Shown here: one piece after another, positions 5,625 through 64,000 of the stretch
Layout: each line of letters opens with the position of its first letter
How positions within the stretch are numbered: the stretch's first letter is position 1
Assembly: GCF_024138125.1 (NCBI RefSeq)
Contig: NZ_CP099993.1
Location: 2,046,001-2,110,000 of the forward strand
Length of the DNA stretch: 64,000 bases
Direction of reading: 5' to 3'
Source: Halorussus salilacus
GTDB taxonomy: Archaea > Halobacteriota > Halobacteria > Halobacteriales > Haladaptataceae
Translations under genes and position numbers: made by a program
The notes under the pieces: generated by a model
Database searches by the model: none
What the model saw: the letters and a program-made list of their open reading frames with translations, nothing else
Told to the model about the DNA's origin: nothing

Positions 5625-5858
5625 GAAAGCCCTCGTCCGCTCGCCACCGGCGGACAAACCGCGTCCGCCGAGCCCTCGCTCGCTCCGCTCACGAGGAGGC
5701 CGCTCAGCGACATATCTGCGCCTCACCGCAACGCACCGCATCGGCGCAGATAGGGGTCGCTGAGGCGACTAAACTGCACGCGAGCGGACGGCCCCTTTCA
5801 GTCCCACCCTGAAGATTGGCCCACCGGCTATCGCGCGGTAGATGATTCACGAGCCGAA
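5625..5858 (+). repeat. Dispersed structured element, family 1, copy A
   Basis: This occupies most of the 411-base gene-free gap between two convergent genes (5486-5896). It starts GAAAGCCC and ends near CCCCTTTCAGTCCC (5793-5806), with a further similar tail to about 5858. Predicted pairing: CGTCCGCTCG with CGAGCGGACG (10 bp), then TCAGCGAC with GTCGCTGA, then TATCTGCGCC (5713-5722) with GGCGCAGATA (5743-5752). Copies B (20546) and C (63928) keep the layout with different stem sequences. This copy has an extra hairpin-rich insert of about 55 nt near 5643-5700. It could be an RNA, a cruciform or a non-autonomous element. Confidence 0.75.
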
Positions 5859-5896
5859 ACGAACACTCGAACTCCGGAAAACAGGCCTCCGCGACC

Positions 5897-7132
5897 TCAG
5901 TACGCGTAGCTCGGGAGCGACCCCTCGGTGACGATACCGGTGTCGTCCTCGGAGTCGAGTTTCTCCATGGCGTCCTCGAAGTCCCCGTGAGTGACCTCGG
6001 TGCGGCCGTCGCGGATGGCGAACATCCCCGCCTCGGTCGTCAGGCTCTCGATGTGCGCGCCGCTGTAGCCGTCGGTCTCGGCCGCGAGCGTCTCGAAGTC
6101 CACCTCGTCGGCGACGTTCATCTCGCGGGTGTGGATGGCCAGTATCTTCTCGCGGGCCTCCTGACTCGGCTCGGGGACCTCGATGAGCCGGTCGAAGCGA
6201 CCGGGCCGGAGGATAGCCTGATCGAGCATGTCGAAGCGATTCGTGGCGGCGATGATGCGAATCTCCCCGCGGTCCTCGAAGCCGTCCATCTCCGAGAGCA
6301 GTTGCATCATCGTCCGCTGGACCTCGGCGTCACCCGAGGTCTTCGAGTCGGTCCGCTTGGCGGCCACCGCGTCTATCTCGTCGATGAAGACGATGGCTGG
6401 CTCGCGCTCGCTCGCCAGCTCGAAGAGGTCCCGGACCAGCTTCGCGCCCTCGCCGATGAACTTCTGGACGAGCTCGGACCCCGCCATCTTGATGAAGGTG
6501 GCGTCGGTCCGGTTGGCGACCGCCTTCGCCAGCATCGTCTTGCCGGTGCCGGGCGGGCCGTGGAGGAGCACCCCGCTCGGGGGCTCGATGCCGACCGTCT
6601 CGAACTGCTCGGGGTTCTCCAGTGGCTGTTCGACGGTCTCGCGTACCTCCTGAAGCTGGTCTTCGAGGCCGCCGATGTCCCCGTAACCGACGTCGGGCGA
6701 CTCGTCGACCTCCATCGCCTGCGCGCGGGCGTCGGTCTCGGCGTCCAGTACGGTCTGGACCGTAAAGGAGTCGTTGACCGCGACGCGGTCGCCCGACTCT
6801 ATCTCCTCGCGGAGCCGCGGAGACACCTCCGTCAGCACCTCCTGGTTGTTGCCGTGCTGTTTGATAACGACGCCGTCGTCGGTGAGTTCCTCGGCGGTCG
6901 CGACGTACAGCGAGGTGGTCTTGAGCGTGTCGTTCTCGCGCTCGATGCGGTCGACCTCCTCGCGGAGGCGCCCGCGGCGTTCGCGGGCGGCGTCGAGGCG
7001 CTCTTCGAGCGTGGCGTTCACGTCCACGAGGTCGGCGAAGTGGTCCCGAAGCGCCGCGAGCCGCTCCCGCTCGCTCATGTCGGGGTCGAGTTCCAGCGTG
7101 GGTTGGTCGGGGACGGGTGGACTGCGCGACAT
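5897..7132 (-). CDS. pan: Proteasome-activating nucleotidase PAN (AAA ATPase)
   Basis: 411 residues. Order: coiled coil (about 18-75), OB domain (about 75-140), then one AAA module with Walker A HGPPGTGKTM, Walker B VFIDEID, sensor AATNRFD and arginine finger ILRPGRFDR. PAN forms the hexameric unfoldase that feeds substrates into the archaeal 20S proteasome. The C-terminus reads SYAY, so Tyr is last rather than penultimate; it does not match the strict HbYX gate-opening motif. A TATA-like CTTTTAAG lies upstream at about 7160-7167. Downstream, towards 5625, is structured element A. Confidence 0.95.
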   Translation of the reverse strand: MSRSPPVPDQPTLELDPDMSERERLAALRDHFADLVDVNATLEERLDAARERRGRLREEVDRIERENDTLKTTSLYVATAEELTDDGVVIKQHGNNQEVLTEVSPRLREEIESGDRVAVNDSFTVQTVLDAETDARAQAMEVDESPDVGYGDIGGLEDQLQEVRETVEQPLENPEQFETVGIEPPSGVLLHGPPGTGKTMLAKAVANRTDATFIKMAGSELVQKFIGEGAKLVRDLFELASEREPAIVFIDEIDAVAAKRTDSKTSGDAEVQRTMMQLLSEMDGFEDRGEIRIIAATNRFDMLDQAILRPGRFDRLIEVPEPSQEAREKILAIHTREMNVADEVDFETLAAETDGYSGAHIESLTTEAGMFAIRDGRTEVTHGDFEDAMEKLDSEDDTGIVTEGSLPSYAY

Positions 7133-7260
7133 CTTGCTGTTCGCCCATAGGCCACCGGCTTAAAAGTGCCTTTGGGTCTCGGCCGTTTAACCGCGAAAAA
7201 ACCTTTCGACCGGTTCGGTCGGTATCGAAGGCGGGTGAGGAAAACGCAGGTAGGAGCCGA

Positions 7261-8976
7261 TCAGTCGGCGCGGGTCTGTGCGGGTTCCCGGGCCGGGGCG
7301 ACCCGGGAGGACTCGTCGGGGAGCGTGAACGTCCCGAGGACGGCGTCGAGTTCGTCGGCGGTCGCCGACAGCGACTCCAGGCGCTCGGAGATGGCCGACA
7401 GCGACCGGGCCTGCTGGTCGCTCGCCGTCGCCGCGGTCTGGGCCTCGGCGGCGGTCTCCTCGCCGATGGCCGCCACCTCCTCGACCATCGCGACCACGTC
7501 GGTCGCCGACTCGGCCTGCTGGTCGGTCGCGTCGCTGATCTCGCGGACGCTCGCGTCCACGTCGCCGACCACGTCGGCGATGTCCTCGAAGTCCCGGAGG
7601 GCGTCCTCGACGGTCTCGACGCTCCGGGAGACCTGTTCGCGGGTCTCCTCGACGTCCGAGAGGGTCGCCTCGGACCGGTGCTGTATCGACTCGATGCGGC
7701 CGGTTATCTCGTCGGCGGCCTCGCCGGTCTCCTCGGCGAGGTTCTTGACCTCGTCGGCGACCACGCCGAAGCCGTCGCCGCGCTCGCCCGCGCGGGCCGC
7801 CTCGACCGAGGCGTTCAGCGCGAGCAGATTGGTCTCGGTCGCCACCTCGTCGATGAACGACGCCACCTCGTCGATCTCCTCGATGTCGGCGGCGAGGTCG
7901 GCGACCGCCTCGGCCGCGCGGTCGATGCCCTCGTCCACCCGGTCGAGTTCCGCGACCGCCTCGCGGGCGGCCTCGCGGCCGGATTCGGCCCGGTCGGTGG
8001 CGGTGCCCGCGGTGTCGGCGACCTCGTCGGCCGACGCCGCAATCTCCTCGACCGTCGCCGAGAGGGTGCTCATCTCGGCGACCACCTCGTCGAGGCGGTC
8101 GGTCTGCTCGGCCGCGCCCTCGGATATCTCGCCGACGGCTTCGGCGACCTCGTCGCTGGCCTCGCTGACCTCGCGGGCGTCGGTCTCGGCGCGCTCGCTC
8201 GCGGTGGCGACCTCGTCGGCGAACGCCGCGAGGTCGCCCACCGTCCCCGCGAGGGTCGCGAGCAGGGCGTTGTAGTTGTCGGCGACCTCCTCGTGGAGGT
8301 CGCTCTCCGCGGCGTCGGGTTCGACGGTCGCGGTCAGGTCGCCGCCCTCCGCGCGCTCGGTCGCGTCGGCGAACGCCGCCACGAGCCGCTGGAGGCTCTC
8401 CGAGCGGCGTTCGAGGTCGTGGGTCATCGATTCGAGTTCGTCGGTGGTCGCTTCGAGGTCTTGGGTGTAGGCCCGGAGGCTCCGTGCCATCCGGTCGAGC
8501 GACGCGCCGAACTCGCCGGGCACCTCCCGGTCGAGGGCGGGGTCGTCGAACTCCTGTCTGGAGAGGGCGTCGGCCTGGTCGGCCACGACGCGGAGGTACG
8601 CCCGCATGTCGCGGAACGACTCGACGAGGCGGCCGAGTTCGTCGTGCTGGTCGGCCTCGGGGAGGCGGGCGTCGAGGTCGCCGCTCGCGATGGCTTCCGC
8701 CCCGCGGTCGAGCGCCGTGATGGGGCCGACGAGGTCCCGGCGGGCGACGAGGAAGGTGTTGAAGAAGGCGACCGCCGACGCCGCGAGCAGTCCGACCGCG
8801 ACCGCGACTCGCGCGAGTCCTCCGACGAGTAGCGGGAGCAGAGCCAGCGCCACCGAGATGCCGAACTGGATGGCGACCGCCGCGACGACCTTCCGTTCGA
8901 CCGATTCGGTCACTCCGAGGCGGTCCATCGACCACCACAGCGCGTCTTCGTACCGGGCGAGGAGTCGGCGTTCCAT
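7261..8976 (-). CDS. Methyl-accepting chemotaxis transducer (Htr family) without an extracellular sensor
   Basis: 571 residues. Two adjacent membrane segments (about 27-50 and 53-75) are joined by almost no loop, so there is no external ligand domain. A HAMP-like region follows ([18 protein letters not shown]), then a second HAMP-like stretch near 190-240 and a long coiled-coil signalling domain with the hairpin tip [20 protein letters not shown]. This signals to CheA/CheW. The layout resembles transducers driven by a membrane partner or internal cues; no rhodopsin gene is in the window. A CGAAC-N2-GTTCG palindrome sits between its TATA and ATG. Confidence 0.93.
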
Positions 8977-8980
8977 ATCT

Positions 8981-8992
8981 CGAACACGTTCG
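8981..8992 (-). promoter_or_regulatory. Palindrome CGAACACGTTCG at the transducer promoter
   Basis: An exact 12-bp palindrome, identical to the site upstream of nirK (58025-58036). It ends 5 nt before the transducer ATG and lies downstream of the probable TATA (minus-strand CTTTTAAC, about 9001-9008). For a leaderless transcript this would cover the start site, a repressor-type position. Confidence 0.6.
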
Positions 8993-9090
8993 TCCAGTTA
9001 GTTAAAAGCAAGCCAGCATTCCCGCGAACTGAGAATTGGAGACCGACTCGGAATCGGGGTCCCGACGCCCGCGGTCAGGACCGCGGGCGT

Positions 9091-9230
9091 CGGACAAAAT
9101 CGCTGGATCCGGGCCGGACGAAATCGCTGGGTCCGGGCCGGACGAAATCGCTGGGTCCGGGCCGGACGAAATCGCTGGGTCCGGGCCGGACGAAATCGCT
9201 GGGTCCGGGCCGGACGGAATCGCTCAGTCC
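9091..9230. repeat. 24-bp tandem repeat, about 5.8 copies, at the pepF 3' end
   Basis: Unit CGGACGAAATCGCTGGGTCC plus GGGC. Near-identical copies lie at 9091, 9115, 9139, 9163 and 9187, and a diverged partial copy at 9211-9230 contains the pepF stop codon. On the minus strand the array thus starts inside the last codons of pepF and runs into its 3' untranslated region. It fills the gap to the transducer gene. There are no unique spacers, so it is not CRISPR. Confidence 0.9.
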
Positions 9231-11023
9231 CGGATGAGCGCCGCCATCTCGTTGAGGTGGTCGTCGTACACGTCGAGCGCGCGCTGGATGGGTTCGGGCG
9301 AGGACATGTCGACGCCCGCGATTTCGAGGAGGTCGAGCGGGTACTCCCGCGAGCCGCTCTGGAGGAACCGGAGGTAGTCCTCGACCGCGGGTTCGCCCTC
9401 CTCCAGTATGCGGTCGGCGAGCGCGACCGCCGCACTCATGCCGGTGCTGTACTGGTAGACGTAGTAGCTGTAGTTGAAGAAGTGAGGGATGCGCGACCAC
9501 TCGCGGGCGATTCGGTCGCCGACGACCGCGGGCTCGTAGAACTCCGCCTTGAGGTCGCCGTATATCTCGTCGGCCTTCTCGGGGGTCAGGGCGTCGCCGT
9601 CCTCGACGACCTCGTGGGCCCGGTGCTCGAAGTCGGCGAACATGGTCTGGCGATAGAGCGTCGAGCGGAAGCGTTCGAGGTACTCGTTGAGGACGTGTCG
9701 CCGGAAGGTGGGGTCCTCGACGGTTTCGAGCAGGTGGTGGGTCAGCAGGGTCTCGTTGACCGTGCTGGCGACCTCCGCGACGAATATCTCGTAGCTCCCG
9801 TAGACGTACGGCTGGTTCTCGCTGGTGAGCTGGGAGTGAAGCGAGTGGCCCAGTTCGTGGGCGAGCGTGAACATCGAGGAGATGTCGTCCTGCCAGTTCA
9901 TCAGGATGAACGGCTGGGTGTCGTACGTGCCGCTGCTGTACGCGCCCGACCGCTTGTTCGCGGTCTCGTACACGTCCACCCACCGGGACTCGAAGCCCTC
10001 CTTCACGCGGTTCTGGTAGTCGTCGCCGAGCGCGTCCAGCGCCGACACGACGTACTCGCGGGCCCGTTCGTACTCCACGTCCGGGGTCTCGGTCTCGGTC
10101 ATGGGCATGTAGAGGTCCCACATCCGGAGCTCCTCGACTCCCAGGCTCTCGCGCTTGAGGTCGGCGTGGCGGTGGAGCTTGTCGAGGTTGTCGCGAACGG
10201 TGTCCACGAGGTTGTCGTACACCTCGACCGGGACGTTCGGCCCGTCCATCGCGGCCTCTCGGGCGGTGTCGTAGTCGTGGATTCGCGCGAGCTTCACGTC
10301 GGTCTTCACGTTGTTCTTGTACGCGGTGCCGATGGTGTTGTGGACCTCACCGAGCCGGTCGTAGAACTCCTCGTAGACGGTCCGGCGGAACTCCCGATCC
10401 GGATTCTTCTGGAGCGTGGTGAAGTTGCTCTGGGTTATCTCGATGCCCTCGCCGTCGGGCTTCTCGACGGTCGGGAAGTCGAGGTCGGCGTTCAACAGCA
10501 TGTTGTAGATGTCGCCCGACGCGCCCGTGACCTCGCCGAGCTCCGCCAGCACGTTCTCGACCTCGGCCGACCGGGTGTGCTCGGCCATCCGCAACACCTC
10601 GTGGAGGTAGTGGTCGTAGGTCTCGAGCCCGTCGGTCGACTCGAGCATCCGGTCGAGTTCGTCGCCGTCGAGCTCCTGAATCTCGGGCCCCATAAAACTC
10701 GCGGCGCTGCTTGCCTTCGATGACAGGGAGCTCGAACGGGATTTCAGCGCCTGATAGTGCTGATTCGCCGTGTCCTCGTCGCTCCGCATCCGGGCGTAGG
10801 AGATGATTTTCTTGGCCTCCCGCATGATGTCGTCGCGGAGTTCGAGCGCCGAGAGGAGCGTCTCGCCGTCCTCGGTGAGTCGGCCCTCGTAGGCCGTCAG
10901 CTCGTCGAGACGTTGCTCTACCTCGTCGTAGGCAGCTTCCCAGTCGTCGTCGGTCTCGTAGATGCTCTCCAAGTCCCACTTGTACTCGGGGTCGACATCC
11001 GACCGTTCGGGAACCGAACTCAT
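9224..11023 (-). CDS. pepF: Oligoendopeptidase F (M3 zinc metallopeptidase)
   Basis: 599 residues, normal length. The zinc site HELGH lies at about residues 389-393, followed by the third-ligand helix around YEIFVAEVAST and the conserved late block PHFFNYSYYVYQYSTG. The N-terminal helical half is typical of PepF. The enzyme degrades short peptides in the cytoplasm; with PAN nearby the context is general protein turnover, though the genes are separated by the transducer. The stop codon lies in the first unit of a 24-bp minisatellite. Confidence 0.96.
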   Translation of the reverse strand: MSSVPERSDVDPEYKWDLESIYETDDDWEAAYDEVEQRLDELTAYEGRLTEDGETLLSALELRDDIMREAKKIISYARMRSDEDTANQHYQALKSRSSSLSSKASSAASFMGPEIQELDGDELDRMLESTDGLETYDHYLHEVLRMAEHTRSAEVENVLAELGEVTGASGDIYNMLLNADLDFPTVEKPDGEGIEITQSNFTTLQKNPDREFRRTVYEEFYDRLGEVHNTIGTAYKNNVKTDVKLARIHDYDTAREAAMDGPNVPVEVYDNLVDTVRDNLDKLHRHADLKRESLGVEELRMWDLYMPMTETETPDVEYERAREYVVSALDALGDDYQNRVKEGFESRWVDVYETANKRSGAYSSGTYDTQPFILMNWQDDISSMFTLAHELGHSLHSQLTSENQPYVYGSYEIFVAEVASTVNETLLTHHLLETVEDPTFRRHVLNEYLERFRSTLYRQTMFADFEHRAHEVVEDGDALTPEKADEIYGDLKAEFYEPAVVGDRIAREWSRIPHFFNYSYYVYQYSTGMSAAVALADRILEEGEPAVEDYLRFLQSGSREYPLDLLEIAGVDMSSPEPIQRALDVYDDHLNEMAALIRD

Positions 11024-11193
11024 ACCATTCCGTAGGGAAACCGACCCCGTAAGCCTTCCCTATTCGGAGCCGTCTTCCGGAAACGGGTGGGACGGCGTCC
11101 GGAAGCGAGTTCGGGAGCGCGGAGAACGGCGAGGCTCTGGCGCTCGGTTGCCCCGGAGGCTACCTTTTTGACTCGGGCCGGTCACGTTCGGGC

Positions 11194-12510
11194 ATGAGCG
11201 ACATCGACCGCTTGCTCGGCGAGACGTGGCGCGACGACTATCCCTGGGAGTTCATCACTCGGCTGACCGAGATCGAGAACCGGATGGGCGGCCACCCCGG
11301 CGAGCGCCGGGCCGCCGACCTCGTGGTCGAGGGGTTCGAGCGCGCAGGCGCTCGGAACGTCGGCGTCGAGTCGTTCGAGATGCGCCGGTGGTCGCGCGGC
11401 GACGCCGAACTCGCGGTCACCGACCCCGTCGAGCGCTCGTTCGAGACAATCGCGCTCCCGTACTCGCCGCCCGGCGAGGTCCGGGGCGAACTCGTCGACG
11501 CCGGATACGGCACGCCGGAGGAACTCGACGAACTCGACCTCCGGGGTAAGATAGTCGTCGCGTCGACCACCACGCCCGAGGGGTCGCGGTTCGTCCATCG
11601 GATGGAGAAGTTCGGTCACGCCGCCGCTGCGGGCGCTGAGGCGTTCGTCTTCCGGAACCACAAGCCCGGACAGCTTCCGCCCACGGGGTCGCTGGAGTTC
11701 GACGCACAGGCCGCGGTCCCGGGCGTCGGCGTGAGCAAGGAGACCGGCGCGTGGCTCACCGACTACGCCGACCGGGGGGCGACCGCATCGCTGCGGGTGG
11801 ACGCGACCACCGAGCGCGCCACCAGCCACAACGCGGTCGCCGAACTCGGTCCCGACACCGACGAGGAGGTCGTCGTGGTCGGCCACCACGACGCCCACGA
11901 CATCGCGGAGGGCGCGCTCGACAACGGCTGTGGCATCACCACGGTCGTCGCCGCGGCCCACCTGCTCGCGGAGATGGACCTCGACACCAGAGTCCGAATC
12001 GCTGGCGTCGGCTGCGAGGAGATCGGCCTGCTCGGAGCCGAGGCGCTCGCCGAGCGCCTCGACCTCGACGACGTCCGCGCCGTCGTCAACGTCGACGGCG
12101 CGGGCCGGTTCCGCGACCTGCTCGCGTACACCCACGGCTCCGAGGCGATGGCAGACCTCGTTGAGGCGGTCGCCGACGAGGCCAACCAGCCCGTCGACAC
12201 CACCGACCGCGTCCACCCGTTCAGCGACCACTGGCCCTTCCTCAAGCGCGGCGTGCCCGCGCTCCAGCTTCACAGCGTCTCCGGCGAGCGCGGCCGCGGG
12301 TGGGGTCACACTCACGCCGACACCCGCGACAAGGTCGACGACCGCAACCTCCGGGAACACGCGATGCTCACGGCACTCCTCGTCCGCAAACTCGCGGGGA
12401 CCGACGAGGTGCCCCGCCGGAGCCCGGAGGCGGTCGCGGCCGAACTCCGCGCGGACGATTACGAGGCGGGGATGAAGGCCGCGGGCATCTGGCCCGAGGG
12501 CTGGGACTGA
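11194..12510 (+). CDS. M28-family zinc aminopeptidase
   Basis: 438 residues. After an N-terminal segment ENRMGGHPGERRAAD there is an inserted PA-like domain (about 100-205), then the catalytic block with zinc ligands in GHHDAHD, the aspartate of ALDNGCG, the Glu-Glu pair in GVGCEEIG, Asp in VVNVDGAG and a late His in GHTHADTRDK. Family members remove N-terminal residues from peptides. No signal peptide is visible, so it is probably cytoplasmic. It is convergent with truA across an 18-bp hairpin. Confidence 0.9.
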   Translation: MSDIDRLLGETWRDDYPWEFITRLTEIENRMGGHPGERRAADLVVEGFERAGARNVGVESFEMRRWSRGDAELAVTDPVERSFETIALPYSPPGEVRGELVDAGYGTPEELDELDLRGKIVVASTTTPEGSRFVHRMEKFGHAAAAGAEAFVFRNHKPGQLPPTGSLEFDAQAAVPGVGVSKETGAWLTDYADRGATASLRVDATTERATSHNAVAELGPDTDEEVVVVGHHDAHDIAEGALDNGCGITTVVAAAHLLAEMDLDTRVRIAGVGCEEIGLLGAEALAERLDLDDVRAVVNVDGAGRFRDLLAYTHGSEAMADLVEAVADEANQPVDTTDRVHPFSDHWPFLKRGVPALQLHSVSGERGRGWGHTHADTRDKVDDRNLREHAMLTALLVRKLAGTDEVPRRSPEAVAAELRADDYEAGMKAAGIWPEGWD

Positions 12511-12542
12511 CCCGAGAAGCGGGATTGAGGCGGAGAATAGGA

Positions 12543-12580
12543 CTGACGTCCTCCTCGCCGAACGGCGAGGAGGACGTCAG
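12543..12580. terminator. Perfect 18-bp hairpin between convergent genes
   Basis: Arms 12543-12560 and 12563-12580 are fully complementary with loop AA. It lies after the M28 peptidase stop and contains the truA stop codon (12577-12579) in its right arm. No T-tract follows on either strand. It is placed like a bidirectional transcript end. Confidence 0.6.
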
Positions 12581-20545: not shown

Positions 20546-20718
20546 GAAAGCCCCCGCCCGCTCGCGGTCGCTCAGCGACATATCCTCCGCTCACTTCGTT
20601 CGCTCCGGATAGAGGTCGCTGAGGCGACTAAACTGCACGCGACCGGGCGGCCCCTTTCAGTCCCGCCCCGTTGGAACGGTTCGTCAGCCGATCCACGGCG
20701 GTTGATTCACCAGCCGAT
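20546..20718 (+). repeat. Dispersed structured element, family 1, copy B
   Basis: This lies in the 483-base gap between the antitoxin and the site-2 protease (20306-20788). It starts GAAAGCCCCCGCCCG and ends CCCCTTTCAGTCCC at 20651-20664, with a further tail (TTGATTCACCAGCCGAT) shared with copy A. Stems: CGCCCGCTCGCG with CGCGACCGGGCG (11 of 12 pairs), TCAGCGAC with GTCGCTGA, TATCC (20581) with GGATA (20607). The string GGCGACTAAACTGCACGCGA is almost invariant in A and B. The rest of the gap (about 20440-20540) is AT-richer and holds nothing I recognise. Confidence 0.75.
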
Positions 20719-56768: not shown

Positions 56769-56801
56769 GCGGGCGCGTGCCGCGACGCGGCACGCGCCCG
56801 C
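56769..56801. repeat. 15-bp perfect hairpin with GAC loop between GT2 and nirK
   Basis: Arms 56769-56783 and 56787-56801 (left arm GCGGGCGCGTGCCGC). It lies about 70 nt after the nirK stop, separating the surface and denitrification loci; flanking DNA repeats GACGCCGACCGG. Confidence 0.6.
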
Positions 56802-56873
56802 GTCGGTGAGGCCCGGCGTCGGGGCCGACCGTACGGGCCTCACCTGCTGGAATCGAGGTCGGCCGTCCGGGAA

Positions 56874-57944
56874 TCACTCGCCGGGTTCGGGGTCGAACAC
56901 CTCGGGGTTCTCCTCGCCCTCGGCCGCCACGACCGCCATACAGCCCTTCCGGGCGACCCGGCTCAGCGCGTGGTCGACCAGCTTGTAGGGGCCGGGCACC
57001 TCGAAGCCCATCGTGGCGACGGTCGTGCTGCCCGGCGCGACCGGCTTGGTCTGGATGTGGGTCTGCGGGTCGCTCGACAGCGACCCCTCGGGCCAGAGTT
57101 CCTCGAAGACGTTGCCGATGGGGTGGAAGTTGCTGGTGAGGTTCGGCCCGCCCGTGACGAAGTACACCCGCGCGGTGTCGCCGGTCTCGACGCCCATCGC
57201 GCCGTAGCCGTCGGGGGTGATGGCGTACTTCTCGGCGTTCATCACGACGTAGCTCGGCTCCTCGCGGGCCATCGCCGACATGTCGAAGCCGTGGTGGCCC
57301 TCCTCGCCCGCGCGCTTGTCGGTGTACAGTTCGTGCTGGCCGAGGTAGAGCTCGTGGTCGACCTCGGGGAGGCCGTCCTCCGGCTCGACGAGGATGATGC
57401 CGAACATCCCCGCCGAGATGTGCATGTCCATGTTCGGGACCGCGCAGTGGTAGATGTACGCGCCGGGGTAGGTCGCCTTGAACTTCAGGCGCGCGGTCTC
57501 GCCCGGCGCGGTCATCGTCGCCTCCGCGCCGCCGCCCGGCCCGGCCGCGGCGTGGAAGTCGACGTTGTGGGGCAGGTCGTTCTCCGTGGGGTTCTCGAAC
57601 GTGAGGTTCACGGTGTCGCCCTTCCGGACCCGGATGAACGGTCCGGGGGCCTGCCCGTTGTAGGTCATGTAGTCGAAGGTGACGCCGTCTTCTACCTCCG
57701 CGGTCACCTCCTCCGCCCGGAGGGTCACGTCGACCTCCGCGGGTTCGCTACGGTCGATGGGGTCGGGGATGTCGGTCGGGTCGGCCGCGACGCGGTCGGC
57801 GTCGGTTTCGGTGTCGGTCTCCTCGGTCGTCTGGGTGGTCGTGTCGGTCGCGCTCGGCGCGCTCTGGCCCGCACAGCCCGCGAGCGAGGCCGCGCCGCCG
57901 ATTCCGAGGCCCTGCAGGACGATCCGCCGGGAAGTCGCTGGCAT
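56874..57944 (-). CDS. nirK: Copper nitrite reductase NirK
   Basis: 356 residues. Tat/lipoprotein-type start (SRRIVLQGLGIGG, then LAGC). Copper ligands in the two cupredoxin domains: LPHNVDFHAA (His126, His131), YIYHCAVPNMDMHISAGM (His166, Cys167, His175, Met180) and the late type-2 His in NFHPIGNVF. It reduces nitrite to NO outside the membrane. A CGAAC-N2-GTTCG palindrome lies 80 nt upstream of its ATG. The NO reductase gene is next on the same strand. Confidence 0.97.
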   Translation of the reverse strand: MPATSRRIVLQGLGIGGAASLAGCAGQSAPSATDTTTQTTEETDTETDADRVAADPTDIPDPIDRSEPAEVDVTLRAEEVTAEVEDGVTFDYMTYNGQAPGPFIRVRKGDTVNLTFENPTENDLPHNVDFHAAAGPGGGAEATMTAPGETARLKFKATYPGAYIYHCAVPNMDMHISAGMFGIILVEPEDGLPEVDHELYLGQHELYTDKRAGEEGHHGFDMSAMAREEPSYVVMNAEKYAITPDGYGAMGVETGDTARVYFVTGGPNLTSNFHPIGNVFEELWPEGSLSSDPQTHIQTKPVAPGSTTVATMGFEVPGPYKLVDHALSRVARKGCMAVVAAEGEENPEVFDPEPGE

Positions 57945-58024
57945 TGGTGGTCACCTCACAGTTGCAGATAGGGGACCGATACCCTTCAACCGAGATTACG
58001 ATTCTCGGGCGTCAGGAACGCTGA

Positions 58025-58036
58025 CGAACACGTTCG
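58025..58036 (-). promoter_or_regulatory. Palindrome CGAACACGTTCG upstream of nirK
   Basis: 12-bp exact palindrome, 80 nt before the nirK ATG and upstream of a weak TATA (minus-strand AATCGTAATCTC, about 57991-58002). An activator position. One of six matches to CGAAC-N2-GTTCG in the window. Confidence 0.7.
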
Positions 58037-58130
58037 CGCCGTTCTCGGAATCCGGGAATCGGCGGGGGACCGCGCCGCACACGTTCGGCCGGAAACCACC
58101 CTCGGCCGGAAAATCAGTCGGGACCGCGGC

Positions 58131-60431
58131 TCAGTCGTCGCCGTCCGACACCGACCGGGTCGCCGCGGGGAACTCCTCGTCGGCGGGCGCGTCCGAGGGC
58201 GTGGTCTCGCGGCGCGCCAGCACCTTCTTGACCACGTCGTAGCCGAAGATGGCGGTTCCGACGATGACCAGCGTGTCGCCCGGCATCCGCAGCCAGAACA
58301 GCAACTGGACCAGTTCGCCCTCGTAGAACGCGAGGCTCCGGGCGGCGTCGTAGGTCTGGGTGAACGCGACCTCCAGCTGGAGGAAGCCGACCGGGAGCAG
58401 CGAGAGGCCGACCATCAGCGCGAGCCCGACGTTCCACGTCCAGAACGCCCACCGGAGGTTGCGCTCGCTCCACTTGGTCTCGGGCACCGCGATGCGTAGC
58501 ATGTAGGTCACCATGCCGAGCGCGAGGAAGCCGAACGCGCCGAACATCGCGGCGTGGGCGTGGGCCACCGTGAGGTAGGTGCCGTGCTCGAAGTAGTTGA
58601 TGATGGGGAGGTTGATGAAGAATCCCAGAACCCCCGCCCCGACGAAGTTCCAGATGCCGCTGGCGACGATGAACATGAACGCGAGCGTGTAGGGGAACGA
58701 CTCCCCGCCGTCGGCCATCGCGCGGTACTGGCCGATGGCCTCGTAGAGGATGAAGACGAGGGGGATGAGTTCGAGCGTCGAGAACGCGCTCCCGATGGGA
58801 ATCCACATGTCGGGCTGGCCGACCCACCAGTAGTGGTGGGAGACGCCGATGACGCCCGTGCCCATCACCAGCAGGGCCTGGACCATGACGGCCTTCTCGG
58901 CCGAGCGCTTCTCTAGGAGGTTCATGCTGACCAGCGTGACGCCGACCAGCGCGACGATGAAGAACTCGAAGGCCCCCTCGACCCACATGTGGACGACCCA
59001 CCACCGCCAGAACTCGGTGACGACGATGTTGGTCTGGGGGGTGTAGAGGAAGCCCGCGGTGAACAGCAGGGCGATGGAGCCGCCCGCGTACAGGATCATG
59101 TGCGCGAGGCCGTACCGCGGTTCGCGGTCGAGCAGGGGCTTGAGACCCCGCGCGGTCAGGCCAGCCCACGCGAGGAAGCCCACGAGAATGCCGACCTGCC
59201 AGAGGCGGCCGATTTCGAGGTACTCCAGCCCCTCGTTGCCCAGAATCCACCAGAGTGCGCCGTCGAGGTAGCCGTTCGCGCCGAACCAGATGCCCGCGAG
59301 GCCGCCGACCACGATGACGACCAGCGCGCCCAGCAGGATGTCGACGTACGTGCCCTGTTTCTTCGGCTCGCGCCCGGTGAGCAGGGGCGGGAGGAACAGT
59401 CCCGCGCCGAGCCACAGCGTGGCTATCCAGAGGATGCCGAGGTCGATGTGCCACGTCTTGGCGATGGCGAACGGCAACAGCGAGAGGAAGTCGATGCCCA
59501 GCATCTCCCCGAGGCCGAAGAACGCGTCGCGCTCGACGTAGTAGTGAGCGAGCAGTCCCCCGAGCAGGACCTGCGCGAGGAACAGCCCCGCGCCCACCAC
59601 CACGAACCGGAGCGCGGCGGCCTGTCCGGGGAAGAGGCTCACCTCGCTCGGCCGGGGGACGGTGACGCCCTCGGTCTCGGGCTCGTCGAGTTCGATGGAC
59701 TTGTAGAGCCACACCCCGGCTCCGGCCCCCGCCACCAGCAGGACCATGGCGATGACGCTCCACGTCATCGCCGCGCCGGTGGCCTCGTTACCCGCCGCGG
59801 GGTGGTAGGGCCAGTCGTTGGTGTACGAGTGGTCGCCGTCGGGCCGGTCGGTGTGGGAGAACCACGCGGTCCAGAGCGCGAAGTCGGCGAACTCGCGGGC
59901 CTCCTCGTCGCTGGCTATCATGTCGGCGGGGACGCCCCGCTCGGGGCTCCCCTCGTGGTAGCGCTCGACGTACTCCTCGCGGACCTGCTCGTGGGCGTAC
60001 GCCTCGGCGGCGGAGTACTCGATGCGGTCGCCAGCCTCGCCGTCGCCGAGGTCGGCCTTCACGGCCACGTCGACCGACGCGCGCTCGCCGTCGTCGAGCG
60101 CGCCGTACTCCTCGCCGTACTGCTCGCGGGCGTAGTAGTCGCGCATGTGCTCGACTTTCAGGTCGAGCGCGTCGGCGGTGTAGTCCTCGCCGTAGTACGC
60201 GCCGTTACCCAGAATCGAGCCGTGGTTCATCAGGCCGTTCGACTGGAAGCTCGTCTTCCCGTCCCGGACCTGCTCTGCGGTGACCATCGTGTCGCCGTCG
60301 GGACCGACGACTTCCTGGGGAATCGGCGGGGCCTCCTGATAGGAGTACCACGCGCCGACGCCCATCACCGCCAGATTCAGGACGAATACGATGGCGAGTA
60401 TCTTCGCGAGCGTGCTACGTCTCACTTTCAT
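58131..60431 (-). CDS. norB: Quinol-dependent nitric oxide reductase (qNOR)
   Basis: 766 residues from the ATG at 60431. First helix ILAIVFVLNLAVMGVGAWY, then an external region (about 35-225) fused as in single-subunit qNOR, then 12 membrane helices with haem and metal histidines in IAKTWHIDLGILWIATL, EFWRWWVVHMWVEGAFEF, VIGVSHHYWWVGQPDMW and VAHAHAAMFGAFGF. It reduces NO to N2O with quinol electrons. Its promoter carries the palindrome at 60499 and, further upstream, six 30-bp repeats. Confidence 0.97.
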   Translation of the reverse strand: MKVRRSTLAKILAIVFVLNLAVMGVGAWYSYQEAPPIPQEVVGPDGDTMVTAEQVRDGKTSFQSNGLMNHGSILGNGAYYGEDYTADALDLKVEHMRDYYAREQYGEEYGALDDGERASVDVAVKADLGDGEAGDRIEYSAAEAYAHEQVREEYVERYHEGSPERGVPADMIASDEEAREFADFALWTAWFSHTDRPDGDHSYTNDWPYHPAAGNEATGAAMTWSVIAMVLLVAGAGAGVWLYKSIELDEPETEGVTVPRPSEVSLFPGQAAALRFVVVGAGLFLAQVLLGGLLAHYYVERDAFFGLGEMLGIDFLSLLPFAIAKTWHIDLGILWIATLWLGAGLFLPPLLTGREPKKQGTYVDILLGALVVIVVGGLAGIWFGANGYLDGALWWILGNEGLEYLEIGRLWQVGILVGFLAWAGLTARGLKPLLDREPRYGLAHMILYAGGSIALLFTAGFLYTPQTNIVVTEFWRWWVVHMWVEGAFEFFIVALVGVTLVSMNLLEKRSAEKAVMVQALLVMGTGVIGVSHHYWWVGQPDMWIPIGSAFSTLELIPLVFILYEAIGQYRAMADGGESFPYTLAFMFIVASGIWNFVGAGVLGFFINLPIINYFEHGTYLTVAHAHAAMFGAFGFLALGMVTYMLRIAVPETKWSERNLRWAFWTWNVGLALMVGLSLLPVGFLQLEVAFTQTYDAARSLAFYEGELVQLLFWLRMPGDTLVIVGTAIFGYDVVKKVLARRETTPSDAPADEEFPAATRSVSDGDD

Positions 60432-60498
60432 ACACGAGTACGTCGTCCAGCGTGGTCCATTTAACGGGGGTCCGGTTCCCGACCCCCGGGAACGTGTC

Positions 60499-60510
60499 CG
60501 AACATGTTCG
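60499..60510 (-). promoter_or_regulatory. Palindrome CGAACATGTTCG upstream of the qNOR gene
   Basis: Exact 12-bp palindrome 67 nt before the qNOR ATG; a TATA-like minus-strand GTTAAATGG lies between (about 60457-60465). Activator-type position. Confidence 0.7.
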
Positions 60511-60600
60511 AAGCGCGGTCGGGACCGCCCCGGTGTCGGTCTTCGCCGGGACGCGACGCCGCGGCGTCGCGTCCCGGCGCTGGGATGGGCGACGACGAAA

Positions 60601-60780
60601 GAAGGGAACGGAAACGCGGCGAATCGAAGAGGGGGAACAGAAGTGCGAGGTGACGAAAGAAGGGGAACGGAAACGTGGGATGACGAAAGACGGGGAACGG
60701 AAACGTGGGATGACGAAAGACGGGGAACGGAAACGTGGGATGACGAAAGACGGGGAACGGAAACGTGGGATGACGAAAGA
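60601..60780. repeat. 30-bp tandem repeat, six units, upstream of the qNOR gene
   Basis: Units start at 60601, 60631, 60661, 60691, 60721 and 60751; the last four are nearly identical (CGGGGAACGGAAACGTGGGA then TGACGAAAGA), the first two diverged, with a partial unit after 60780. It fills much of the 413-base gap between the cupin stop and the qNOR start (60432-60844). A GC-rich imperfect hairpin (about 60800-60838) follows. No unique spacers, so not CRISPR. Confidence 0.9.
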
Positions 60781-60844
60781 CGGGGAACCGAGCGATCCGA
60801 GCCCGCGGCCCGGCCGCCGTCCGGCGGCCGGACCGCGGCGGCGA

Positions 60845-61150
60845 TTACTCTCCGGAGCGCGGGGCGAGGACCAACAGCGCGGTGCTGTCGGCCTCCGCCC
60901 GGGGTGCCACCTCCCGTCGGCCGTCGAATCGTAGCAGTTCGCCCGGTTTGAGCACGTTCGACTCGCCGTCGATGCACACGTCGAGTCGGCCCGACACCAG
61001 ATACACCACGAGCTCGCGCTCGGGGTGGCTGTGGGCGGGCACCGCCTCGCCCTCGCCGAGCGACAGGCGGACGGTCTTGGGCTCCGACCCGGGGAACGCG
61101 ACCTCCCGGGGCGTCTCGGTCAGGTCGTCGAGTGCGACTGTCTCGGTCAT
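60845..61150 (-). CDS. Small cupin protein
   Basis: 101 residues, one cupin barrel: VPAHSHPERELVVYLVSGRL carries the first metal motif (H-x-H-x3-E) and PGELLRFDGRREVAPRAEA the second strand pair, in which the usual His is not obvious. It is 18 nt after the DUF2249 gene, probably in one operon under the palindrome at 61437. Cupin genes near denitrification enzymes are common in haloarchaea; the role is unknown. Confidence 0.86.
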   Translation of the reverse strand: MTETVALDDLTETPREVAFPGSEPKTVRLSLGEGEAVPAHSHPERELVVYLVSGRLDVCIDGESNVLKPGELLRFDGRREVAPRAEADSTALLVLAPRSGE

Positions 61151-61168
61151 GGCAGTGTGATCCAGTCG

Positions 61169-61396
61169 CTACCGCTTCGGGAATCTGGCGACGAACGTCC
61201 GGTCTCCCTCGCGTTCGACCTCGTAGCCGTCGGCGTCGAACGACTCGACCTCGGCCTGCATCTCGTAGAACAGCGGCTTTGGCTCGTGGTCGTTGACGAT
61301 TTCGAGGGTCTCACCGCTGTCCATGTCCTCGAACGTCTGGTGGATCATCGGGTGACGCTCCGGCGGCGGAATCTCGCGGACATCTACGGTCGGCAT
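61169..61396 (-). CDS. DUF2249 protein (TusA/SirA-like fold), first copy
   Basis: 75 residues from the ATG at 61396 (a GTG at 61402 is also open). DVREIPPPERHPMIHQTFED, GETLEIVNDHEPKPLFYEM and the end REGDRTFVARF are DUF2249 motifs, a small fold related to TusA but without the sulfur-carrying CPxP cysteine. Such genes cluster with nitric-oxide and denitrification genes. Promoter palindrome 40 nt upstream. Confidence 0.88.
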   Translation of the reverse strand: MPTVDVREIPPPERHPMIHQTFEDMDSGETLEIVNDHEPKPLFYEMQAEVESFDADGYEVEREGDRTFVARFPKR

Positions 61397-61436
61397 GCAC
61401 ACGGTGGTTGGCCCGGTCGGCTATTCGGGGTTGCCC

Positions 61437-61448
61437 CGAACGTGTTCG
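61437..61448 (-). promoter_or_regulatory. Palindrome CGAACGTGTTCG upstream of DUF2249/cupin operon
   Basis: Core of a 20-bp perfect palindrome GCCCCGAACGTGTTCGGGGC (61433-61452), 40 nt from the ATG. The adjacent string GGTTGCCCCGAA is repeated at the second DUF2249 promoter (63858), so the two promoters are related. Confidence 0.72.
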
Positions 61449-61489
61449 GGGCGCGGGGCCAGCCCCGCCGAATCAGTCCGAGCGCGGAG

Positions 61490-61873
61490 TCAGTCCTCGG
61501 TCGAGGGGTCGAACTCCCCCCTCTTCAGGCCCTCCCGGACGGGGTCGTGCTCGGCGTCGGTCGGCGGCGGCGCGGTCACCAGCGTCGCCTCCAGTCGCTC
61601 GCCGGGGTCGGCCCTCACGCCCCGGTCCTCCCCGGCCGGGACGACCACCACGTCGTCGGGTTCGACCGCGTGCTCGTCGTCGCCGTCCCGGACCACGCCG
61701 GTCCCGCGCCGGACCGTGATGGCGACGTCGCTGTCGGGCGCGTGGACGGGGATGAACTGTCCGGGTTCGAAGTAGCCCAGCACCACCTTCATCCGGTCGC
61801 TCCGGAAGACCGGGCGGGCGGAGAACCGCTCGTCGTCGTACTCGCGCTCGGCGTCGAAGTCTGTCGCGACCAT
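61490..61873 (-). CDS. Cupin-domain protein of the denitrification locus
   Basis: 127 residues. FSARPVFRSDRMKVVLGYFE, PGQFIPVHAPDSDVAITVRR and DDVVVVPAGEDRGVRADPGE show a cupin barrel; the first motif holds one His. C-terminal tail is acidic. It has its own palindrome 38 nt upstream and is therefore probably a separate unit of the same regulon. Confidence 0.84.
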   Translation of the reverse strand: MVATDFDAEREYDDERFSARPVFRSDRMKVVLGYFEPGQFIPVHAPDSDVAITVRRGTGVVRDGDDEHAVEPDDVVVVPAGEDRGVRADPGERLEATLVTAPPPTDAEHDPVREGLKRGEFDPSTED

Positions 61874-61911
61874 GTCCGAAGGGTGGGCGGTGTCGGGGGT
61901 GGACGCTTCGC

Positions 61912-61923
61912 CGAACGTGTTCG
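61912..61923 (-). promoter_or_regulatory. Palindrome CGAACGTGTTCG upstream of the cupin gene
   Basis: Identical core to the site at 61437, 38 nt from the ATG. No good TATA lies between, as expected of an activator-dependent promoter. Confidence 0.7.
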
Positions 61924-61973
61924 GGTTCGGGGGTTTCGTGGGTGTGGGTTCTGTGGCACGAACTGGACGCGAC

Positions 61974-62167
61974 CGAACTAGCTACTGCCGAGCCGACCGG
62001 ACTAGCTACTTCCGAGTCGACCGAGCTAGCTACTCCCGGTACCTAGGAGAACCGCACCGCCACCGCAGACCTCGACCCTCCCCAGCCTCCTGCGTTTCTC
62101 GGTCGTTCCCTTCGGTCACTCCCTGCGATACTCGTCCCTCGCGCGCGTTGCTCGCGCGCGCCGGTGG
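61974..62167 (+). repeat. Dispersed element, family 2, copy 3, with tripled left end
   Basis: In the 382-base gap 61874-62255. The left end is repeated: ACCGAACTAGCTACTGCCGA, ACCGGACTAGCTACTTCCGA and ACCGAGCTAGCTACTCCCGG (24-bp spacing from about 61974). The full element then runs from 62025 through CGCACCGCCACCGC, CCTCCCCAGCC, TGCGTTTCTCGG and TGCGATACTCGTCCCTCGCG to a GCGCGCG hairpin and CCGGTGG at 62167. The remainder to 62255 holds nothing I recognise. Confidence 0.75.
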
Positions 62168-62255
62168 AAAAATACGAGGCTACAGTTACTTACGAGGGTG
62201 CGGTTAGGGGTACGTGGAAGACGTGGAAGATGTGTGGAGGCCGCCCTCGGGTCCG

Positions 62256-63617
62256 TCACGGGTACCGCTCGTCGGGGTCGGGGTCGGCGTCCGACCGGGT
62301 CGCCTCCTCGGCGGCCAGCCTACCGATTCGGAGCGACTCGGGGCCGTGCCGGACCACCACGCCCACGAGGTTCGCCGCGAACACCGCGAAGCCGATGGTC
62401 GCGGCGATTCCGCCGACGAGGACCGCGGGGTCGACCCCCGCCAGCTCCCCGCCGACCACGACCGAGAGACCCCCGAGCGCGAGCCAGAAGTCGGCGACCG
62501 CGAGCCGGTCGTCGTAGAGGTCGTCGATCATCGGCACCGGTTCGAGCCCCACGCGGTCGCTGTACCGCTGGACCCAGACGATGAACGGGACGACGTGGTA
62601 GAGCGTCCCGAGCAGGACGAACCCCACGACGCCCCCGAGCAGGAGGTGGCCCGCGCCGGGCGCGCCCACGGTCGCCGCGGGGTCGGTCGGGTCGGCCAGC
62701 CACGCGGGCGCGCTCGCGAGCGCCCACGCCGGGAGCGCGCCCGCGACCACCGCGTATCGGGAGAGCATCGGCGTGCGCTCGACCCGCGTCTCGCGCAGCT
62801 TCCGGGCGAGAACCGCCGCGAACGCCAGCAGGCCGACCAGCACGAACGCGGCCCCCGCGAGCGCGATGGGCTCGCTGTCGATTCCGCGCCCGCCAGCGAG
62901 CGCGAGGACCCCGGCCGGGTAGGTCCACTCCTCGACGCGCCGGAGCAGGATGTCGGTCCCGCGGAGCTCGGTCTGGGTGAACATCGTCCCGAGCTGGTAG
63001 AGCGCGCCCACGACGGTCGTGAGGACGATTCCGAACACCGCGAGCGTGGCGTGGGCCTCGACGATTCCCGTCCGGGAGAGGCCCGCGTCGGCCAGCACCG
63101 GCCGGGCGAAATCGACCGCGAGGACGAACCCGAGCGCGGTGACCGCGACGAGGGACCCGAGCGCGAGCGCGAAGTGGCGCTCGGTCACGTCCCACCCCTC
63201 GACTCCCGAGAGGGTGCGCCCGACGTTGTAGGCGAACACCCAGAAGCCCGCGAGCATCGCCGCGCCCGCGACCGGAAGCCAGCCGAGTTCGCCCGCCACG
63301 AGCAGGGCGGCGAATCCCGCGACCCCGACCGCGACGAGCCCGAGCTGGACGGCCGCCAGCCGCCGGGAGCGTAGCTCGACGCCCGACCAGACCGGGACGA
63401 ACTGGGTCATCGCGCCCATGATGGTGACACAGACCCACCCGACCAGCAGGAGGTGGACGTGGGCCGCGACCGAGAGCCCTTGCCCGAACCCGGCCGCCTC
63501 TGCCACCCCGAGCGCGCTCCCGGCGAGCAGGAACCCGAACCCGACCACGAAGTGACCCAGCGGTATCGCCATCGGCGGGCCGCGCTCGGCGTCGATACCC
63601 CCGGGAATCGCGCTCAT
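62256..63617 (-). CDS. 12-TM haem-copper/NnrS-like membrane protein
   Basis: 453 residues from the ATG at 63617, about twelve helices. Histidines sit in VAAHVHLLLVGWVCVTIMGA, RHFALALGSL, VEAHATLAVFGIVLTTVVGA and LYHVVPFIVWVQRYSDRVG; the last resembles helices of NorB/CcoN-type subunits and of NnrS. A tryptophan/acid-rich tail is soluble. It overlaps the DUF2249 stop by 4 bases and shares its promoter, so NO metabolism is likely. Catalysis is unproven; a full set of oxidase ligands is not evident. Confidence 0.82.
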   Translation of the reverse strand: MSAIPGGIDAERGPPMAIPLGHFVVGFGFLLAGSALGVAEAAGFGQGLSVAAHVHLLLVGWVCVTIMGAMTQFVPVWSGVELRSRRLAAVQLGLVAVGVAGFAALLVAGELGWLPVAGAAMLAGFWVFAYNVGRTLSGVEGWDVTERHFALALGSLVAVTALGFVLAVDFARPVLADAGLSRTGIVEAHATLAVFGIVLTTVVGALYQLGTMFTQTELRGTDILLRRVEEWTYPAGVLALAGGRGIDSEPIALAGAAFVLVGLLAFAAVLARKLRETRVERTPMLSRYAVVAGALPAWALASAPAWLADPTDPAATVGAPGAGHLLLGGVVGFVLLGTLYHVVPFIVWVQRYSDRVGLEPVPMIDDLYDDRLAVADFWLALGGLSVVVGGELAGVDPAVLVGGIAATIGFAVFAANLVGVVVRHGPESLRIGRLAAEEATRSDADPDPDERYP

Positions 63618-63826
63618 CGTCTCGTTATCTCGGCGCGCCACTCGTCGTCCGTGACCCGCTCGGTCTCGTGGTCGAAGCCCCTCCTGTCGAGGACCGCGTA
63701 CAGCGGCTCGGGCTCGAAGCTGTTGACCAGCACCAGCGTATCGTCGTCGCCGAGGTCGCCGAGCGCCGACACGATGTCGGAGAACGGTTCGCCGTCTCTC
63801 TCGCGCACGTCGAGGGTTCGGGGCAT
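63614..63826 (-). CDS. DUF2249 protein, second copy
   Basis: 70 residues. RTLDVRERDGEPFSDIVSAL, DTLVLVNSFEPEPLYAVLDR and the end DDEWRAEITRR match the family and align with the copy at 61169. It overlaps the 12-TM gene by 4 bases. The palindrome (one mismatch) lies 38 nt upstream. Confidence 0.88.
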   Translation of the reverse strand: MPRTLDVRERDGEPFSDIVSALGDLGDDDTLVLVNSFEPEPLYAVLDRRGFDHETERVTDDEWRAEITRR

Positions 63827-63864
63827 GTTCCGAAGTCGGTCGGCGATTTCGGTAGCGGTTGCCC

Positions 63865-63876
63865 CGAAGGTGTTCG
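63865..63876 (-). promoter_or_regulatory. Imperfect palindrome CGAAGGTGTTCG upstream of the second DUF2249 gene
   Basis: One mismatch to CGAAC-N2-GTTCG, 38 nt from the ATG, inside GGTTGCCCCGAA context shared with 61437. Confidence 0.62.
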
Positions 63877-63927
63877 GCCCTCAAGAGTGGCGTGAACGAG
63901 TGCTACAAATTCAGCCGAGAACGCCCA

Positions 63928-64000
63928 GAAAGCCCCCGCCCGCTGGCGGTCGCTCTGCGGGATATTCAGGCCTCTCCGCAACGCCCGGCCTGAATAGTCG
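63928..64000 (+). repeat. Dispersed structured element, family 1, copy C (cut by window end)
   Basis: Starts GAAAGCCCCCGCCCGCT, then GGCGGTCGCTC and a perfect 10-bp stem TATTCAGGCC (63963-63972) with GGCCTGAATA (63987-63996), loop 14 nt. The stem sequence differs from those of A and B, but the position, the TAT/ATA ends and the complementarity are kept. The right half lies outside the window. Confidence 0.7.

What the first reader, a model, noticed from the sequence alone, without database searches (positions are those of the whole stretch)
5625..64000. Dispersed structured element (family 1) with compensatory stem changes in three copies
Copies at 5625, 20546 and 63928 share GAAAGCCC at the left; A and B also share GGCGACTAAACTGCACGCG and CCCCTTTCAGTCCC at the right (copy C is cut before this). 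The terminal stem is TATCTGCGCC/GGCGCAGATA in A, TATCC/GGATA in B and TATTCAGGCC/GGCCTGAATA in C: different sequence, kept pairing. The outer stem also covaries: CGTCCG/CGGACG in A against CGCCCG/CGGGCG in B, a T-A for C-G exchange. This is what selection on a folded RNA or cruciform predicts. I do not know a named family that matches. All copies lie between genes, none inside one.
Basis: partly seen in the sequence, partly recalled or inferred. Interest (0 to 1): 0.74.

Follow-up and report, generated by a model that had tools for sequence, protein, structure and literature searches.

The report
Haloarchaeal folded dispersed repeat family
Three look-alike hairpin sequences in this window belong to a large, apparently unnamed family of scattered elements in salt-loving archaea, whose folded single-strand shape is kept by evolution while its letters keep changing.

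Summary
The window's genome has 98 matches to the right end, reversed control 0. A covariance model without any sequence of this genome finds window copies B and A and matches 291 of 392 Halobacteriales genomes. Outside the order the end motif is at control level.

All main helices covary, including the 5-bp end helix between lineages: GAAAG/CTTTC, GGAAG/CTTCC, GAACG/CGTTC, CGAAG/CTTCG, CAAAG/CTTTG.

A cruciform predicts no bias.

On that strand the core is GGGYGGG, helix 1, a GGG/GGG internal loop, helix 2, exchangeable tip. Four conserved G-triplets suggest, but do not prove, a quadruplex core.

No Rfam match above threshold, no transposase-sized copy seen, no dependence on an IS200-type transposase. 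Closest described kinds: Haloquadratum small mobile repeats and bacterial REP/ERIC repeats. RNA or single-stranded DNA, and how it spreads, stay open.

The parts
5625..5809 (-). Copy A, whole element; read on the minus strand: leader 5809-5803 (GGGTGGG), P1, G-triplet loop, P2, interior with extra nested hairpins (about 5645-5699) and the tip stem
   Evidence: model hit E = 9.7e-4
5803..5809 (-). Copy A leader GGGTGGG (two G-triplets)
   Evidence: conservation
5625..5629 (-). Copy A helix P1, one arm (partner 5795-5799)
   Evidence: covariation between lineages
5795..5799 (-). Copy A helix P1, other arm
5630..5632 (-). Copy A G-triplet of the 3x3 internal loop (partner triplet 5792-5794)
   Evidence: the MFE fold leaves one more base pair open here (4x4)
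5792..5794 (-). Copy A second G-triplet of the internal loop
5633..5644 (-). Copy A helix P2, one arm (partner 5780-5791); first pair is a T-G wobble on the plus strand
5780..5791 (-). Copy A helix P2, other arm
5713..5752 (-). Copy A tip stem TATCTGCGCC (5713-5722) / GGCGCAGATA (5743-5752) with its loop
20546..20668 (-). Copy B, whole element; P1 20546-20550/20654-20658, G-triplets 20551-20553/20651-20653, P2 20554-20565/20639-20650 (one C-C mismatch), leader 20662-20668
   Evidence: model hit E = 2.8e-7
63928..64000 (-). Copy C, left part; cut by the window end, complete in the genome (L020 429-562)

Best explanation
The three copies belong to a haloarchaea-wide family of transposase-free dispersed repeats whose conserved unit is a fold of one single strand, most likely the minus strand of this window: 5' GGGYGGG leader, 5-bp clamp helix P1, GGG/GGG internal loop, long helix P2, exchangeable tip. 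SHOWN: the family and its limits, covariation of the helices, conserved G-triplets, presence and absence at orthologous sites. WELL SUPPORTED: the polarity of the fold. INFERRED: the folded strand is the form that an unidentified trans-acting protein recognises, through which the repeat is copied or kept, so that letters drift while the shape stays; tips are exchanged between copies by recombination; replication slippage at the hairpin makes the tandem arrays beside it. Whether the recognised strand is RNA or exposed single-stranded DNA is undecided.
For: 98 right-end matches, control 0. Outer stem: 1035 of 1080 cells Watson-Crick in 90 copies with 27 different arms. Covariation. P1 blind test: of 20 regions chosen for an altered right arm 17 carry the matching left arm; in G004 20 of 20 fetched copies pair, two by a wobble that exists only on the minus strand. 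Polarity: plus-strand A-C 30 against G-T 9 in outer stems, 28:9 without repeats of one stem, p 0.0026; minus-strand G-T 38:8, 20:3, 7:5 in A2, A4, A3; RNAalifold energy minus against plus -50.0/-43.9 (A2), -61.7/-61.2 (A3), -104.5/-89.6 (A4). Mobility or loss: copy A site occupied in 4 of 11 placed same-genus genomes; second site occupied or partial in 5 of 12. Copy counts 0-187 per genome.
Against: Single-strand z-scores are stronger on the plus strand. Own-genome mismatches do not decide the strand (7:5). Mutation bias could add to the asymmetry: unpaired C-to-T 5.9% against G-to-A 3.0% in A2 and 9.1% against 1.9% in A3, though 3.0% against 3.0% in A4 (which used the minus-strand structure). 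No insertion with exact boundaries or target duplication was seen, no mobilising gene was found, and 11 Haloarcula plasmid copies sit at one kept place, which looks like function rather than movement. Cells counted are not independent events; many rows come from a few genomes.
Confidence: 0.6

Rival explanations
1. Structured non-coding RNA family proper: each copy is transcribed from the minus strand (own promoter or read-through) and acts as RNA, for example by binding one common RNA-binding protein; copies stay because the RNA is useful.
For: Wobble preference on one strand; purine-rich internal loops with kept letters in the type-2 tip; a fold of about 250 nt with three hairpin domains in G004; kept place and core on 11 Haloarcula plasmid loci.
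Against: No transcript evidence was available. Orientation to neighbouring genes is 29:12 in the own genome but 25:24 elsewhere, so copies are not simply parts of messenger RNAs. Copy number 0-187 per genome is odd for a needed RNA.
Confidence: 0.25
2. DNA cruciform or ordinary palindrome kept by both strands, or perfected by template switching inside the hairpin, without selection on one strand.
For: Nested palindromes and whole-arm replacements are common; template switching is known to make compensatory changes in one step (recalled, not looked up); own-genome mismatches are symmetric (7:5); plus-strand z-scores are as strong.
Against: Mismatch asymmetry 38:8 and 20:3 in other genomes; internal loops, leader and G-triplets are kept although template switching would not keep them.
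Confidence: 0.08
3. Non-autonomous derivative (MITE, PATE or REP) of an IS200/IS605-type or other known transposon.
For: High copy number, intergenic places, presence/absence at sites, tail-to-tail pairs in one genus.
Against: G041 has 92 motif matches and no Y1 transposase match; 8 of 18 same-genus genomes have none. None of 240 arm-matched copies exceeds 579 bases (the loci held were 0.2-8 kb, so longer ones could be missed in short loci). The two arms pair with each other across the whole element, unlike IS605 ends.
Confidence: 0.07

Closest known systems
Small mobile repeats SMR-A of Haloquadratum walsbyi (HqIRS42, 43, 55; PMC3119063: passages and section 25 read)
   Same: Haloarchaeal, about 110 bp, inverted ends, tens of copies, no transposase, way of moving unknown
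   Different: SMR-A copies are commonly over 95% identical and insert into PATE/IS605 palindromes; here arms and tips differ freely between copies and the shape is kept. Their sequences were not compared here
REP / BIME repeats with RAYT transposases (PMC3733652 and PMC2817692: search-listing abstracts only)
   Same: High-copy intergenic palindromes, tail-to-tail pairs in one genus
   Different: Longer (median 118), modular tip, other end motif; no Y1 transposase in a genome with 92 matches
ERIC, BOX and similar modular intergenic repeats (recalled; PMC2229807 and PMC3049150 seen in a search listing only)
   Same: Over 100 bp, intergenic, foldable, modular
   Different: Other domain of life; no sequence comparison made
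STAXI motif (PMC2864571: passages)
   Same: Covarying motif often near genes for single-strand-binding proteins; 5 of 12 Haloarcula plasmid loci here have an annotated SOSS-B family gene downstream
   Different: STAXI is a repeated pseudoknot; this is a long stem with a G-triplet loop
Quadruplex motifs in Haloferax volcanii (PMC12873603: passages)
   Same: Potassium-rich haloarchaea form G-quadruplexes in DNA and RNA
   Different: No intergenic repeat family is mentioned in the passages seen (0 occurrences of 'intergenic' and 'palindrom')

Membership tests
SMR-A small mobile repeats | about 110 bp long | tested here: met
   240 arm-matched copies: median 118, 5-95% 104-192
SMR-A small mobile repeats | copies commonly over 95% identical within a type | tested here: not met
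   27 different 12-base arms in 90 copies of one genome
SMR-A small mobile repeats | prominent inverted terminal repeats | tested here: met
   P1 and P2 arms
SMR-A small mobile repeats | no target duplication; insertion into PATE/IS605 palindromes | not tested
   no close strain pair with an exact empty site was available
REP with RAYT transposase | 20-40 bp palindrome | tested here: not met
   median 118; collapsed copies of about 30 bp are a minority
REP with RAYT transposase | Y1-type transposase in copy-rich genomes | tested here: not met
   G041: 92 motif matches, 0 PF01797 matches
MITE of a known transposon | ends shared with an autonomous element | tested here: inconclusive
   no copy over 579 bases among 240; only fetched loci examined
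Any Rfam family | score at or above the gathering threshold | tested here: not met
   8 loci at gathering: only a tRNA; 9 and 12 loci at E up to 1: only miRNA families far below threshold, best 29.6 of 74 bits
CRISPR-like array (the tandem left ends) | different spacers between repeats of one array | tested here: not met
   units within an array are near identical, e.g. six 54-base units
G-quadruplex motif | four runs of three or more G on one strand | tested here: met
   window copies, 20 of 20 in G004; exceptions such as L331 and L333
G-quadruplex motif | a quadruplex actually forms | not testable with these tools
   ViennaRNA prefers it only in the hairpin-less copy (-9.6 against -4.6 kcal/mol) and cannot model the form with a long hairpin in a loop

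The most novel reading that the evidence does not exclude
The element is a natural duplex-quadruplex-duplex fold: the GGG/GGG internal loop between helices P1 and P2 and the GGGYGGG leader stack into a three-tier G-quadruplex in the potassium-rich haloarchaeal cell, and one protein recognises this G-core on an RNA (or single-stranded DNA) encoded at up to about a hundred or more places per genome across an archaeal order, which lets the arms evolve freely.
Probability: 0.25. Interest if true: 0.88.

Novelty: new variant of a known kind. Interest (0 to 1): 0.74.

Why it matters
If right, haloarchaeal genomes carry a very abundant covarying fold that neither Rfam nor the papers found in the ten searches made here names. 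It is a ready natural experiment: many arm sequences with one shape, and relatives with none beside relatives with over a hundred copies. The strand asymmetry and the G-triplets make direct, cheap predictions about transcripts and quadruplex formation. Such repeats also matter to assembly, promoter mapping and small-RNA studies in these organisms.

Tried and rejected
Orientation to neighbouring genes looked supportive at first (29 against 12 in the own genome) but was 25 against 24 in other genomes (pooled 54:36, p 0.07): dropped. CRISPR array: rejected. IS200/RAYT dependence: tested, not supported. Long copies with a gene inside: none among 240. Replication-strand preference: orientation runs are random (43 against 45.6 expected). 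Phage origin: no phage record matches. Rfam: nothing above threshold. Papers: ten searches showed no paper describing this family; string searches hit unrelated sequences; subscription papers and preprints are not in that library.

Selection and counting caveats. The loci of other genomes were fetched by the right end, so the invariance of P1, leader and G-triplets in A2 and in the 'ext' half is partly built in; the tip letters GTGCTT were used to pick type 2. Own loci were also mostly fetched by an end pattern with up to 3 mismatches. G004 copies were fetched as the best-scoring hits of a model that includes the leader. One search dropped 10 of 100 rows (9 without a standard left end, 1 too short) and keeps 4 rows out of register (24, 27, 42, 88). 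A1 used 15 of 19 copies, A2 48 of 60 type-2 copies, A3 46 of 48, A4 17 of 20 (L421, L423, L428 left out). A2 has no row from the window's genome and none titled Halorussus, but its metagenome rows bear no genus name, and many rows come from a few genomes. One search scores at most 9 candidates per genome, so its counts are floors. The pattern misses lineages with other ends (G004: 0 by pattern, 82 by model). One search examined 17 of 30 fetched loci; 5 of the 17 lacked one flank.
Full report
OBSERVATION. The complete copy C, read beyond the window end, has the same right side. The left end is GAAAGCCC, the right end GGCCCCTTTCAGTCCC followed by ACCC or GCCC. The right end (21 nt, up to 3 mismatches) occurs 98 times in the 3.6-Mb genome, 50 forward and 48 reverse, reversed control 0. 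With up to 4 mismatches I extracted 100 places, 91 with a standard left end; a few of the other 9 look degenerate or false.

ANATOMY, on the minus strand of the window. 5' leader GGGYGGG-ANT; helix P1 (5 bp); a 3x3 internal loop GGG/GGG; helix P2 (mostly 12-13 bp); an interior. Two interiors dominate. Type 2 (60 of 127 copies of other genomes under 135 bases) has the tip letters GACGNAAGCACYGCAG ... GAGGAGCGCAGCGAG. Collapsed copies without a hairpin exist (rows 31 and 47; L153 and L177). Lengths of 240 arm-matched copies: 51-579, median 118.

COVARIATION. Own genome: 1035 of 1080 cells of the outer 12-bp stem are Watson-Crick in 90 copies with 27 different arms; in A3 (46 own copies) 15 of 36 pairs have changes on both sides. 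Other genomes, A2 (48 copies): 21 of 32 pairs; 95.8% of cells pair against 76.8% in shuffles and at most 44.8% when partners are slid by 1-3 columns; covariation score 0.480 against 0.149; 0 of 500 shuffles as high on that score, 2 of 500 on the count of pairs. P1 never varies in A2, but those loci had been fetched by a pattern that covers P1. The blind test is elsewhere: of 20 regions chosen for an altered right arm, 17 carry the matching left arm (15 by the script, 2 collapsed copies, L354 and L356, by eye), 1 collapsed copy (L359, minus) is mismatched, and 2 (L358, L360) have no recognisable left arm. In G004, found by the model and not by the pattern, 20 fetched copies have P1 as CGAAG/CTTCG (17), CAAAG/CTTTG (1), TGAAG/CTTCG (1) and TAAAG/CTTTG (1), the last two with a wobble that exists only on the minus strand; leader and GGG/GGG loop are kept in 20 of 20.

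STRAND. Outer stems scored without favouring wobbles: plus strand A-C 24 against G-T 6 in 127 copies of other genomes, 6 against 3 in 85 own copies; 28 against 9 over 153 distinct stems, p 0.0026. An earlier own-genome count with 4 rows out of register gave 11 against 8. With only the pairs that both strands' predictions share, the minus strand has G-T 38 against A-C 8 in A2, 20 against 3 in A4, 7 against 5 in A3. RNAalifold energies favour the minus strand in A2 (-50.0 against -43.9) and A4 (-104.5 against -89.6), not in A3 (-61.7 against -61.2). Against this, single-sequence z-scores of copies B and C are stronger on the plus strand. Mutation bias is an alternative: unpaired C-to-T against G-to-A is 5.9% against 3.0% in A2, 9.1% against 1.9% in A3, but 3.0% against 3.0% in A4, where single steps to a wobble still beat single steps to A-C 26 to 2 (that call used the minus-strand structure, which leans the same way). 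I conclude that the fold is probably under constraint as a single strand of one polarity. RNA and single-stranded DNA both tolerate G-T/U better than A-C (general knowledge), so this does not separate them. Cells are not independent events.

G-TRIPLETS. For copies recognised by left end and matching arm, the letters after the right arm are CCCCTTTCA-N-T-CCC-R-CCC. The spacer R varies (A 65, G 42, C 11, T 2 of 120 own; A 75, G 43, C 8, T 5 of 131 others); N varies in the own genome (G 84 of 120) but hardly elsewhere (G 121 of 131); the C positions stay at 90% or more except own positions 13 and 17 (105 and 103 of 120). Most of these loci had been fetched by the right end, so the figures are flattered. 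On the minus strand this makes four G-triplets, two facing each other between P1 and P2. They persist in lineages where P1 and P2 have changed. In the hairpin-less copy they form an ordinary quadruplex motif. Exceptions exist (L331, L333). I read this as suggestive, not as proof.

SPREAD. Pattern: 259 of 392 Halobacteriales genomes, 72 of 95 genera, 0-187 matches each; 279 further genomes of the phylum give 0-2 each, like the reversed control. Model: 31 of 40 relatives at E <= 0.001, 70 places in the own genome, 82 in G004; 291 of 392 genomes, 75 of 95 genera, at E <= 1e-5. In the window the model reports copies B and A and nothing else up to E 10; the cut copy C is not reported. E-values are rough.

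MOBILITY AND SURROUNDINGS. Copy A lies between a called plus-strand ORF and a minus-strand AAA ATPase gene. Of 18 loci, 11 (own included) had both flanks: 4 carry a copy in the same orientation with quite different interiors (G000, G156, G124, G181), 7 have none (G017, G090, G118, G136, G097, G066, G074). At a second site in genus g21, 12 of 17 examined loci had both flanks: tail-to-tail pair in 3, partial in 2, absent in 6, another insert in 1. Copies are nearly always between genes: 3 of 99 and 3 of 124 lie inside called ORFs. Beside the P1 end 9 of the first 19 copies have one or more extra left ends within 260 bases, period 54 or 57, up to six or more units, and 45 in g21. On 11 Haloarcula plasmid loci the core is the same while the tip is of at least two unrelated kinds; a twelfth (L340) is more divergent. 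A kept place there suggests function; flank divergence was not measured.

MECHANISM. Most likely the folded single strand is a recognition handle for an unidentified trans-acting protein through which the repeat spreads or is kept; the shape matters more than the letters, apart from the G-triplets. Tip exchange between copies is inferred from tips shared by different stems; array growth by slippage is inferred. The Y1 transposase route is not supported: G041, with 92 matches, has none.

COMPARISON. Nearest described: small mobile repeats of Haloquadratum (PMC3119063, passages and section 25 read), REP/BIME (listing abstracts only) and ERIC/BOX repeats (recalled). It works like them, a high-copy, transposase-free, structured intergenic repeat, but fails tested features of SMR-A (identity between copies) and REP (length, transposase). 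Rfam has no match above threshold. Ten paper searches found no description; that library lacks subscription papers. I rate it a new variant of a known kind, with a quadruplex-core fold as the boldest reading still open.

Noticed in passing
L411-L430 (G004), 5' of the element on the element's strand; also L040, L093, L137, L165, L167, L221: A second structured module, GGCGCGYGC-hairpin-GCGCGCGAGGGA-hairpin-GGYTGGGGAGG, stands before the element: script match in 18 of 20 G004 loci, both motifs in order in 11 of 124 loci of other genomes (reversed control 1) and 4 of 85 own loci (control 0). It may be a repeat family of its own.
   Followed up: partly
G000:C1:1889829-1890118 (L040) and many other copies: Tandem arrays of the left end with strict periods (54/57 in this genome, 45 in genus g21), number of units differing between orthologous sites.
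   Followed up: partly
L026, L029, L171, downstream of the right end: Runs of a roughly 27-base unit (GGTGGACTGTGTCACCGGCCGATTCTC type), each able to form a small hairpin, follow many Halorussus copies.
   Followed up: no
G000:C1:1513582-1890265: A 377-kb stretch of the main contig holds no copy; random placement gives a largest gap above 247 kb in only 5% of runs.
   Followed up: no
L148, L149, L332, L335, L336 (Haloarcula plasmids): The element stands about 490-600 bases before an annotated SOSS-B family gene on several large plasmids, in the same orientation; other plasmid loci have a hypothetical gene there.
   Followed up: partly
L366 (G676), orthologous site of L152: A different insert with inverted ends GAGCCTGTCCGAAAAA...TTTTTTCGGACAGGCTC, MITE-like, occupies the site where relatives carry the element.
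   Followed up: no
window 5645-5699; rows 19, 29, 55, 98: Some copies, copy A among them, hold several extra palindromes nested inside the stem, as if the hairpin were a landing place for other small palindromes.
   Followed up: no
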